From Curtobacterium flaccumfaciens (GTDB lineage: Bacteria > Actinomycetota > Actinomycetes > Actinomycetales > Microbacteriaceae), in NCBI RefSeq assembly GCF_013359815.1, contig NZ_JABMCF010000039.1:62001-126000 (forward strand): 64,000 bases of DNA. Reading direction: 5' to 3'. The position numbers and the translations under genes were made by a program. Shown piece by piece: positions 10,138 through 59,056 of the stretch. Position 1 is the first letter of the stretch; every line of letters begins with the position of its first letter. Under the pieces are notes generated by a model. It was not told where the DNA came from. It made no database searches and worked only from the letters and a program-made list of their open reading frames with translations.

Positions 10138-10189
10138 CTGACGGACGGGAGGCCCGTGGCGGCGTCGCCACGGGCCTCCCGTCCGTCAG
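10138..10189. terminator. 24-bp perfect hairpin, bidirectional terminator
   Basis: Arms 10138-10161 and 10166-10189 pair perfectly around a GCGT loop. It lies 2 nt after the ATPase stop and 16 nt from the stop of the convergent MFS gene. No T-tract. It belongs to a six-member palindrome family in this window (core GGAGGCCCGTGG). Confidence 0.75.
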
Positions 10190-10205: not shown

Positions 10206-11447
10206 TCAGGCGGTCGCGACCCGGCGCGGGAGCAGCAGGTTGCCGACCGCGGCGACCACGACGATCGCGGCGGAGACCGCCGGCAGCAGCATCGCTGCGG
10301 CGGTGCCGTGGTGCTCGGCGACGTCCCCGGTGATCGCGGAGGCGATCGACTGCCCGACGATGACGGCCGACCCGAGGATCGTCATGGTGGTGGCGGACCG
10401 GCCGACCGGTGAGCGGTCCGAGCCGAGGCTGTACTGGGCGACCAGGGTCGGCCCGATCCCGATGCCCATGATCGCGAGGACGACGCCCGCGGCGAGGACG
10501 GAGTCGGCGCTGGCGAACGCGACCGCACCGGCGAGGAGCACGACGCCGAACAGGAGCCAGCGCCAACCGAGGCCGAACGACCGCGGGAACGCTGCCGACC
10601 CGAGTGCCAGCCCGGCGGAACCGATGCCCATCAGGCCGTAGAGCAGGCCGGCCTGCGAGGCTTCGCCGTGGGTCTCCATGAAGGCCGTCAGCGAGGTGAG
10701 CGTCGAGCCGAAGAACAGGCCGATGCCGAGGATGCCGACGACCACGACGACGAGCCGCGGGCGCAGGAGCTGCCGTGCGGGTGCCTGCGTCGACTCCGCG
10801 TGCTGGCCGACCACGAGCTTGCCGGTCGGGTGCAGCGCGAACGCCGTGACGAACACGAACGTCAGGACCGAGGCGCCGGCGACGGCCACCCACGGGGCGA
10901 TCGCGCTGGCGAGGATGCCGACCAGGAACGGGCCGATGATGAACACGGTCTCGTCGGCGGCGGACTCGTAGGCCATCGTGCCGCTGAGGGTCTTCTCGCG
11001 CCGCGCCGGGGCCATCCGCTGCCGGATGATCGCGACGAGCCGGGTGCGGGACATCGGGGCGACCTGCGGGGCCGAGGCACCGATGCAGAACGCGACCGCG
11101 AGGACGGCGAGGTCGGGCGCGGTGCCGCTGACGACGAACGGGAAGAACCCGAGCAACGCCGCGTTCACCAGGCCGACGGGGACGAGCACCGCCCGCTGGC
11201 CGTAGCGGTCGGCCGCGGCGCCGACCATCGGGCCGAAGATCGCGGAGCCGATGCCGACGGCGGCGGAGTTGATGCCGCCGAGGGCGACGGAGTCACGGGC
11301 GGCGACGACGAGGGTCAGGACGCCCACCACCATCATCGCGAACGGGAGCCGGGCGATGAACGCCACGGGGAAGTACCAGCGGCCGGCGAGGGAGACGAGT
11401 GAGCGGTCCGGAGCGGGCGGGGCGTCGGTTGAGCGGGTCTGGAGCAT
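10206..11447 (-). CDS. MFS transporter
   Basis: 413 residues, 12 predicted membrane helices. The cytoplasmic loop after helix 2 reads GAAADRYGQR, the major-facilitator motif A position. I chose ATG 11445-11447 (MLQTRSTD) because the hydrophobic core starts about 20 residues later and an AGAAGG site precedes it; upstream codons in frame look non-coding. It is probably a proton-driven exporter of small molecules, with unknown substrate. It sits alone between a shared terminator and a 560-nt gene-free stretch holding repeats. Confidence 0.85.
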   Translation of the reverse strand: MLQTRSTDAPPAPDRSLVSLAGRWYFPVAFIARLPFAMMVVGVLTLVVAARDSVALGGINSAAVGIGSAIFGPMVGAAADRYGQRAVLVPVGLVNAALLGFFPFVVSGTAPDLAVLAVAFCIGASAPQVAPMSRTRLVAIIRQRMAPARREKTLSGTMAYESAADETVFIIGPFLVGILASAIAPWVAVAGASVLTFVFVTAFALHPTGKLVVGQHAESTQAPARQLLRPRLVVVVVGILGIGLFFGSTLTSLTAFMETHGEASQAGLLYGLMGIGSAGLALGSAAFPRSFGLGWRWLLFGVVLLAGAVAFASADSVLAAGVVLAIMGIGIGPTLVAQYSLGSDRSPVGRSATTMTILGSAVIVGQSIASAITGDVAEHHGTAAAMLLPAVSAAIVVVAAVGNLLLPRRVATA

Positions 11448-11633
11448 CGGGGTTGTGCCTTCTCGGCCCGCCCGGTTCAGTGGCGGCGGACCCATCGGGT
11501 GCCGCCGTTGTCCGCCGGGATGCCGGCGGCCGGTAGATACACACTGCGTGTTGTCGAACGCTGCCGATGGTACCAACCGGCCGCCGCGCCCCGGAGGAGT
11601 TCGCTCCGGGCGCCGTCCCGGCGGTCAGCCGTG

Positions 11634-11716
11634 GTGCGGTCGCAGACCGTCGCCTGCGGCGCCGCCAGCCGACAGTTCGTGACCGGTCGCCGGGCGACCC
11701 GCGACGGGTCGTGACC
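11634..11716 (+). repeat. 83-nt intergenic element, copy 1
   Basis: Matches 11858-11940 at 79 of 83 positions with no gap. Internal pairing: GGTCGC (11638-11643) with GTGACC (11679-11684), and GGTCGCC/GGCGACC around a single G (11685-11699). CGAC and GTCG around two bases (11702-11711) form a third stem. One copy difference turns a standard pair of the first stem into a G-U pair, another falls in the centre of the third stem. Confidence 0.8.
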
Positions 11717-11758
11717 AGCCCCCGTATGCCGACCACGCGACGCAACGCGACCGGACGA

Positions 11759-11801
11759 CGGACGGGAGGCGCGTGGCGGCGTGCCCCGTGCCTCCCGTCC
11801 G
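11759..11801. repeat. Degenerate member of the palindrome/terminator family
   Basis: CGGACGGGAGGC (11759-11770) pairs with GCCTCCCGTCCG (11790-11801). The inner part no longer pairs well. The left side is nearly identical to the hairpin at 10138. It could still end the aldo/keto reductase transcript, though it lies about 200 nt past that stop. Confidence 0.55.
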
Positions 11802-11857
11802 CCGCGCCGCGCGCCCAGGGCCAAGCAGCGGTCACGACACCCCGTCGGCCGTGCGCC

Positions 11858-11940
11858 GTGCGGTCACAGACCGTCGCCGGCGGCGCCGTCAGCCGACAGT
11901 TCGTGACCGGTCGCCGGGCGACCCGCGACGCGTCGTGACC
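11858..11940 (+). repeat. 83-nt intergenic element, copy 2
   Basis: Second copy of the element at 11634-11716, same orientation, 224 nt further on. Here the first stem is the fully complementary GGTCAC/GTGACC and the third stem is the exact palindrome CGACGCGTCG. Confidence 0.8.
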
Positions 11941-12007
11941 GGCCGGCGGGACCCGCCGAGCGACGAGATGCGACCGGCCGAGGGACTGGTGCGGCGTGGG
12001 GCTCGGG

Positions 12008-28762: not shown

Positions 28763-28810
28763 GACGGACTGGAGGCGCGGTGCCAGCTGACACCGCGCCT
28801 CCAGTCCGTC
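28763..28810 (-). terminator. Terminator of the trypsin-like protease gene
   Basis: Arms 28763-28782 and 28791-28810 pair perfectly (20 bp, 8-nt loop). It starts 8 nt after the protease stop. Family member; the base before GGAGG is T here and its partner A, preserving the pair. Confidence 0.75.
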
Positions 28811-59008: not shown

Positions 59009-59056
59009 GACGGACAGGAGGCCCGTGGCGATCCCGCCACGGGCCTCCTGTCCGTC
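59009..59056. terminator. Bidirectional terminator between aztD and the sugar operon
   Basis: Arms 59009-59030 and 59035-59056 pair perfectly (22 bp, ATCC loop). 17 nt after aztD and 38 nt from the convergent stop. Family member; the variable pair is A-T here. Confidence 0.75.

What the first reader, a model, noticed from the sequence alone, without database searches (positions are those of the whole stretch)
11634..11940. An 83-nt element duplicated in a gene-free stretch, with differences that preserve pairing
Two same-strand copies (11634-11716, 11858-11940) match at 79 of 83 positions. Both can form the same three stems. Of the four differences, one changes a standard pair to a G-U pair in the first stem and one lies in the centre of the third stem. 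A degenerate terminator-type palindrome sits between them. This could be a structured RNA, a paired protein-binding site, or the ends of a small non-autonomous element.
Basis: partly seen in the sequence, partly recalled or inferred. Interest (0 to 1): 0.6.

Follow-up and report, generated by a model that had tools for sequence, protein, structure and literature searches.

The report
Repeated DNA docking palindromes after genes
The two copies belong to a large family of palindromic DNA elements that sit mostly just after genes in the soil and plant bacterium Curtobacterium and look like docking sites for an unknown DNA-binding protein rather than an RNA.

Summary
The duplication is real (79 of 83) but is a fragment of something bigger. 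The unit is a 110-111-bp nested palindrome of four half-sites (A, B, B', A') sharing the core GGTCRCRA, at nearly fixed spacings 31/32, 39, 31/32 bp. The window's genome (Curtobacterium, inferred from record titles) holds at least 87 units or part-units in 42 clusters, often in tandem; 59 of 66 genus genomes carry it.

The arms pair but vary independently (57 units), so a folded RNA is disfavoured. Half-sites are conserved in place between species (92% against 78% outside). Clean gaps bearing it are 21 convergent, 9 tandem, 0 divergent. No RAYT-type transposase was found in 36 genus genomes.

A 47-bp form, GGTCRCRA-N31-TYGYGACC, occurs in 25 of 85 sampled Microbacteriaceae genera, Curtobacterium included. 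Its arms are self-complementary but genome-specific: pairing is explained by a genome-wide consensus, not copy by copy.

Best reading: duplex binding sites for an unidentified protein, working like BIME/REP arrays without belonging to the described REP families. Function is inferred, not shown; helical phasing of arrays replicated only in part.

The parts
11614..11720 (+). Unit copy 1 (B, B', A'; first half-site A not recognisable)
   Evidence: model R1 match, E 1.3e-19
11827..11947 (+). Unit copy 2, complete (A, B, B', A')
   Evidence: model R1 match, E 6.3e-26
11638..11645 (+). Copy 1, core of half-site B (GGTCGCAG, 7 of 8)
11677..11684 (-). Copy 1, core of half-site B' (39 bp from B)
11709..11716 (-). 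Copy 1, core of half-site A' (32 bp from B')
11830..11837 (+). Copy 2, core of half-site A (GGTCACGA)
11862..11869 (+). Copy 2, core of half-site B (32 bp from A; 7 of 8)
11901..11908 (-). Copy 2, core of half-site B' (39 bp from B)
11933..11940 (-). Copy 2, core of half-site A' (32 bp from B')
11756..11804 (.). Terminator-type palindrome between the units (GGACGGGAGGC...GCCTCCCGTCC); similar palindromes lie between units in other arrays
   Evidence: inverted repeat I3; other arrays seen by eye
11745..11752 (-). Further half-site-like core (7 of 8), status uncertain
11968..11975 (-). Further half-site-like core (7 of 8), status uncertain
10206..11450 (-). Flanking MFS transporter gene (start not settled)
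   Evidence: PF07690
12008..13060 (-). Flanking aldo/keto reductase gene; the units lie beyond its 3' end (start not settled)
   Evidence: PF00248

Best explanation
Shown: the repeat is a dispersed, nested palindromic element with four copies of an 8-bp core (GGTCRCRA) at nearly fixed spacing, often in tandem, mostly at gene 3' ends in Curtobacterium; a single 47-bp form occurs elsewhere in the Microbacteriaceae. Inferred: each core with its flank is a half-site read on double-stranded DNA by an unidentified sequence-specific, symmetric (homodimer-like) protein. A and B lie 31-32 bp apart, about three helical turns, so two dimers could sit on one face. Tandem units would carry a larger nucleoprotein complex between neighbouring, often convergent, transcription units, where it would act as an insulator, roadblock or supercoil-handling site, as has been proposed for BIMEs. 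The half-site 'dialect' differs between genomes while the core stays, as expected if the protein's specificity drifts and its sites follow. The duplex-binding step is the best supported inference; the effect on transcription or topology is a guess.
For: Near-invariant core distances: B-B' 39 in 200 of 209 scorable, A-B 31/32 in 181 of 191, B'-A' 31/32 in 200 of 207. Strong palindrome (77.8% of cells pair, 29-47% when slid) without covariation. A and B share one core although A pairs with A' and B with B'. Constraint in place: 14 loci, G061 (one of them G000) against G032, half-sites 1002 of 1092 identical, spacers plus flanks 831 of 1064; 11 loci, G061 against G084, 665 of 858 and 529 of 836. 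Positions conserved: 14 of 14 G032 loci and 12 of 26 G084 loci share both flanks with G000/G061 element loci. 3'-end bias: 21 convergent, 9 tandem, 0 divergent against 4, 27, 8 in element-free gaps, Fisher p 5e-7. Other genera, 75 listed elements in 27 genomes: own arms pair 67.5% against 37.7% with arms shuffled among all, 68.7 against 55.4% within genus (69 elements), but 68.1 against 67.4% within genome (63 elements; 1170 of 4000 shuffles as high). Positional counterparts with different arms: aminotransferase|phoH in Curtobacterium and G145, glpX|gntR in G145 and G312, riboflavin synthase end in G145 and G465. Array spacings show a 10.5-bp period in the discovery set.
Against: No binding protein was identified. 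Helical phasing of arrays replicated only in part: the two genomes named beforehand gave p 0.30 (12 spacings); four held-out genomes together gave p 0.004 on 48 distinct spacings but p 0.12 on 37 per-array medians. The element is patchy: 7 of 66 genus genomes have none at E 1e-4, and genomes of one other genus (g79) range from 13 to 0 exact matches, more like a gained and lost repeat than an essential site. One of the two core purine positions shows a hint of within-genome covariation in other genera (66 paired against 60.4 expected, 59 of 4000 shuffles), and one genome (G259, 3 elements) pairs better than its own consensus (0.70 against 0.59). A founder effect (each genome's copies spread from a different founder) would also give dialects without within-genome covariation. 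In one search the best-matching unit pair of each locus was used, which favours similarity overall, and the palindrome's loop (200 of 238; 111 of 187) was left out of the comparison.
Confidence: 0.57

Rival explanations
1. A non-autonomous mobile element (MITE- or REPIN-like): the half-sites are binding sites of a transposase not recognised here; copies spread in bursts and arrays grow by unequal exchange. It may be the origin of the element even if it now has a host role.
For: Terminal inverted repeats A/A'; copy number 0 to over 50 between genus genomes; orthologous spacers with 0, 1, 2 or 3 units; genome-specific arms; an element inside the end of the riboflavin synthase reading frame in two genomes; outer length 110.5 is about a 47-bp palindrome plus 63, as if one palindrome sat inside another (arithmetic; no free A-type palindrome was found in the Curtobacterium loci held).
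Against: PF01797 in 0 of 36 genus genomes; no target duplication or clean empty site seen; positions shared between species and half-sites conserved in place.
Confidence: 0.27
2. A transcribed hairpin: bidirectional terminator or mRNA 3'-end stabiliser acting as RNA.
For: 3'-end location; long arms; terminator-type palindrome between units.
Against: No covariation in 57 Curtobacterium units or, over ten inner pairs, within genomes of other genera; fold z-scores -1.67 (RNA) and -1.13 (DNA); shared core in A and B is not required by a hairpin; no Rfam match.
Confidence: 0.1
3. A chance local duplication without function.
For: The two window copies are more alike than other copies, so a local tandem duplication did happen.
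Against: At least 87 copies in the genome and 59 of 66 genus genomes; conserved in place.
Confidence: 0.01

Closest known systems
REP / BIME elements
   Same: High-copy extragenic palindromes, in mosaics, mostly between convergent or co-directional genes; REPs/BIMEs bind gyrase, IHF and Pol I (passages of PMC3733652, PMC2817692 and PMC1525189).
   Different: Units of 47 or 110-111 bp with a paired GGTCRCRA core at both ends, not 20-40 bp with an unpaired GTAG or CGTC tag; no Y1 (RAYT) transposase in the 36 genus genomes searched.
REPINs with RAYT
   Same: Inverted doublets; genome-specific families (features partly recalled; search listings and starts of abstracts seen).
   Different: No RAYT found; tag and size differ.
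MITEs (from general knowledge)
   Same: Terminal inverted repeats, no coding capacity.
   Different: No target duplication, clean empty site or partner transposase shown.
Operator- or parS-like chromosomal site arrays (from general knowledge)
   Same: Repeated symmetric half-sites at fixed spacing, conserved in place.
   Different: No protein known; sites lie at gene ends and not at promoters or near the origin only.

Membership tests
REP/BIME (GTAG or CGTC superfamilies) | High-copy extragenic palindrome | tested here: met
   At least 87 units or part-units in 42 clusters; mostly intergenic
REP/BIME (GTAG or CGTC superfamilies) | Between convergent or co-directional genes | tested here: met
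   21 convergent, 9 tandem, 0 divergent of 30 clean gaps; feature from a passage of PMC3733652
REP/BIME (GTAG or CGTC superfamilies) | 20-40 bp with an unpaired GTAG or CGTC tag at one end | tested here: not met
   47-bp or 110-111-bp symmetric units with paired GGTC/GACC; feature from PMC3733652
REP/BIME (GTAG or CGTC superfamilies) | Associated Y1 (RAYT) transposase | tested here: not met
   PF01797: 0 of 36 genus genomes, 2 of 59 overall; 5 of 14 control genomes ring
REP/BIME (GTAG or CGTC superfamilies) | Binding of gyrase, IHF or Pol I | not testable with these tools
   needs biochemistry
MITE | Terminal inverted repeats | tested here: met
   A/A' arms of 16 bp
MITE | Target-site duplication and clean empty site | tested here: inconclusive
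   One locus compared by eye in 13 syntenic genomes; junctions diverged, no duplication seen
MITE | Partner transposase with the same ends | not tested
   Only PF01797 was searched
Structured RNA | Compensatory covariation | tested here: not met
   80 double-change cells against 100.1 in shuffles; 68.1 against 67.4% within genome
Structured RNA | Known Rfam family | tested here: not met
   0 matches at the gathering threshold in the window
Structured RNA | Transcript | not testable with these tools
   no RNA-seq at hand

The most novel reading that the evidence does not exclude
A family-wide chromosomal site system of the Microbacteriaceae: a dedicated DNA-binding protein reads GGTCRCRA-centred half-sites at gene ends, its specificity drifts between lineages, and dozens of sites per genome follow in concert ('dialects'), including at the same loci in different genera; Curtobacterium elaborated it into four-half-site, helically phased arrays that build large nucleoprotein complexes between convergent genes.
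Probability: 0.32. Interest if true: 0.82.

Novelty: new variant of a known kind. Interest (0 to 1): 0.6.

Why it matters
If right, an actinobacterial family carries an apparently undescribed, high-copy set of protein-binding sites at gene ends. It would be a natural experiment in how one DNA-binding protein and scores of its sites change together, and a BIME-like system that does not depend on RAYT transposases. It also shows why some draft contigs of this genus end in such arrays (the ends of own-genome contigs C33 and C26 both match one array of G061).

Tried and rejected
RNA structure: rejected on covariation. RAYT mobilisation: not supported. Presence on phages or plasmids: no match for the 128-base stretch with copy 2 in either collection. 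Orthology by tblastx without a score floor was noise in this high-GC DNA; redone with a floor of 85 bits, 2 of 52 other-genus elements share both flanks with Curtobacterium element loci (L228, L241). L228 is an exact counterpart; L241 has an extra gene between. In one search, L223/L229 was dropped (element on opposite sides of the shared gene), and L242/L245 lie in neighbouring, not identical, gaps.

Arm pairing in other genera: one search used 70 of the 75 listed other-genus elements; five (G400, G382, G264, two of G300) had been left out without good reason. One search repeats it with all 75; figures fall by one to three points and the conclusion stands. Both use only the places that one search listed, which were the first ones of a genome and cut short.

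Helical phasing: one search used spacings I picked by hand and gave stronger values (p 2e-4 on 43 distinct spacings, p 0.010 on 34 medians); one search adds the further in-range spacings and is the figure to use. Beforehand I had named G087 and G006 only (note); these alone do not replicate. One G019 array was left out because it was in the discovery set. Held-out loci were not screened for orthology with discovery loci; 12 of 26 G084 loci are orthologous to G000/G061 loci.

Gene context rests on my own GC-frame gene calls. Set aside before the test: 5 gaps over 1.5 kb, 9 copies at stretch edges or without two flanking calls, 2 copies inside ORF calls. One of these, L118, is flanked by divergent calls in the looser calling.

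Literature: (letters GGTCGCAA) listed no paper describing the element; only search listings and starts of abstracts were seen; passages of PMC12306157, no Curtobacterium. Open-licence PubMed Central only.

Full report
Observation. They lie between an aldo/keto reductase gene (PF00248) and an MFS gene (PF07690), both on the minus strand. Rfam (gathering threshold) and ARAGORN found nothing in the window.

The real unit. A BLAST search of 59 genomes found 20 matches in the window's own genome (G000), matches in 29 of 36 genus genomes, and weak ones in 8 of 23 genomes outside (best E 5.8e-4). Aligned copies show a nested palindrome of 110-111 bp: A GGTCRCRACACCCCGC, B GGTCRCRAACYGTCG, then B' and A' as their reverse complements. 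The genus is inferred to be Curtobacterium: all 18 stretches found by a pattern scan of named genomes are Curtobacterium records, and a contig of genus genome G002 has the length of one of them (405,095 bases).

Copy number. A sequence-only model (R1, from 57 units) gave 155 matches in G000, both strands counted. Rescanning the fetched stretches gave 87 units or part-units in 42 clusters in G000 and 99 in 38 clusters in the same-species genome G061; these are lower bounds because the searches were capped. In the genus 59 of 66 genomes match at E 1e-4. In a family sample R1 matched only this genus at E 1e-9 (3 of 299 genomes, 1 of 85 genera; strict filters, 11 candidates scored per genome).

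Not a folded RNA. In 57 units the nested pairing holds in 77.8% of cells, against 29-47% when slid, but shuffled partners give 78.6% and more double changes (100.1) than observed (80). At the purine positions of the core the arms vary independently or worse (for example columns 47/86: GT 25, AT 21, AC 10, GC 1). Folds of copy 2 are close to those of shuffles (RNA z -1.67, DNA z -1.13).

Geometry. Core distances are B-B' 39 (200 of 209), A-B 31 or 32 (181 of 191), B'-A' 31 or 32 (200 of 207), although spacer columns are very variable. 31.5 bp is three turns of B-DNA. In tandem arrays the centre-to-centre spacings used run from 113 to 257 bp, and in 29 orthology-merged loci the strongest period between 5 and 20 bp is 10.50 bp (R 0.52; jitter p 0.001). 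Held-out data agree only in part: 48 distinct spacings from four genomes peak at 10.45 bp (p 0.004), 37 per-array medians do not (p 0.12), and the two genomes named beforehand give p 0.30 alone. I count phasing of arrays as suggestive.

Constraint in place. 35 of 42 G000 clusters share flanks with 34 of 38 G061 clusters. All 14 fetched G032 loci (another species) and 12 of 26 G084 loci (best flank identities 77-90%) share both flanks with G000/G061 element loci; 3 G084 loci share one and 11 none (the reference list is incomplete). Array length is fluid even between the complete genomes G061 and G032 (6 against 1, 5 against 6, 4 against 2 units). Half-sites change less than their surroundings: 91.8% against 78.1% identity (G032, 14 loci) and 77.5% against 63.3% (G084, 11 loci). 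At the window's own locus, 13 syntenic genomes hold 0 (eight), 1 (one), 2 (three) or 3 (one) units.

Position relative to genes. With home-made gene calls, 30 clean element-bearing gaps of G000 were 21 convergent, 9 tandem and 0 divergent, against 4, 27 and 8 among 39 element-free gaps (Fisher p 5e-7 for convergent, 0.008 for divergent). Sixteen rows were set aside before the test, and one of those loci (L118) looks divergent in the looser calling.

Beyond the genus. The inner palindrome GGTCRCRA-N31-TYGYGACC, searched without mismatches, occurs in 41 of 398 Microbacteriaceae genomes and 25 of 85 genera, Curtobacterium included; the reversed-letter control rang in one genome. Nine genera, Curtobacterium included, have a genome with three or more. 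In the 20 other-genus loci examined it is a single palindrome without outer half-sites at the Curtobacterium distance; the left flank is NGAGG in at least 34 of 50. Arms differ between genomes but are self-complementary. Over the 75 other-genus elements that one search listed (27 genomes), own arms pair 67.5%, against 37.7% when right arms are shuffled among all; within genus 68.7 against 55.4%; within genome 68.1 against 67.4% (1170 of 4000 shuffles as high). So the palindrome follows a genome-wide consensus, not the individual copy. A trans-acting reader of duplex half-sites predicts this; a founder effect could also produce it. One core purine pair shows a hint of within-genome covariation (66 against 60.4; 59 of 4000). 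Some elements sit at the same place in different species or genera with different arms: aminotransferase|phoH in Curtobacterium and G145 (different genera), glpX|gntR in G145 and G312, and the end of riboflavin synthase in G145 and G465, where the element is part of the reading frame. The 3' end of the trigger-factor gene carries one in G145 and in G464, another genus, with different genes downstream.

Mechanism. I think it most likely that a sequence-specific, symmetric protein binds these half-sites on duplex DNA and forms complexes at gene ends. Shown: dispersed symmetric half-sites, fixed spacing, constraint, 3'-end location, dialects. Inferred: the protein, its symmetry, and any effect on transcription or supercoiling. 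REPs/BIMEs are the closest analogue: extragenic palindromes between convergent or co-directional genes that bind gyrase, IHF and Pol I (passages of PMC3733652, PMC2817692 and PMC1525189). By tag, size and transposase this is not a member of the described REP superfamilies.

Limits. No protein, no transcript and no experiment. Only one transposase family was sought. Exact-core searching underestimates other genera. G000 is a draft that may collapse arrays.

Noticed in passing
window 10143-10184, 11760-11800, 28766-28807, 59012-59053: A second palindrome, GGACGGGAGGC...GCCTCCCGTCC and close variants, recurs in the window: 16 half matches with up to one mismatch against 7.66 expected. G074 and G075 differ by its presence in the same spacer (L068, L067).
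   Followed up: partly
   Followed up: partly
listing, genus g79 (G145, G312, G387): The middle of many 47-mers in this genus carries ACACGCCG or ACACGSCGTGT, itself near-palindromic and resembling the continuation of the A half-site of Curtobacterium.
   Followed up: no
listing, genus g76 (G464, G386): The arms GGTCGCAACACGCCG of this genus are the A half-site of Curtobacterium, here 47 bp apart end to end and not 110-111 bp.
   Followed up: partly
L119 (own genome, 2385-3185): An array with six units or part-units in G000 but three in G061, against the usual trend of fewer units in the draft genome.
   Followed up: no
window about 11538-11555: An operator-like palindrome (ACACACTGCGTGTT) upstream of the MFS gene, also present in the orthologous spacers L062, L063, L065 and L069.
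   Followed up: no
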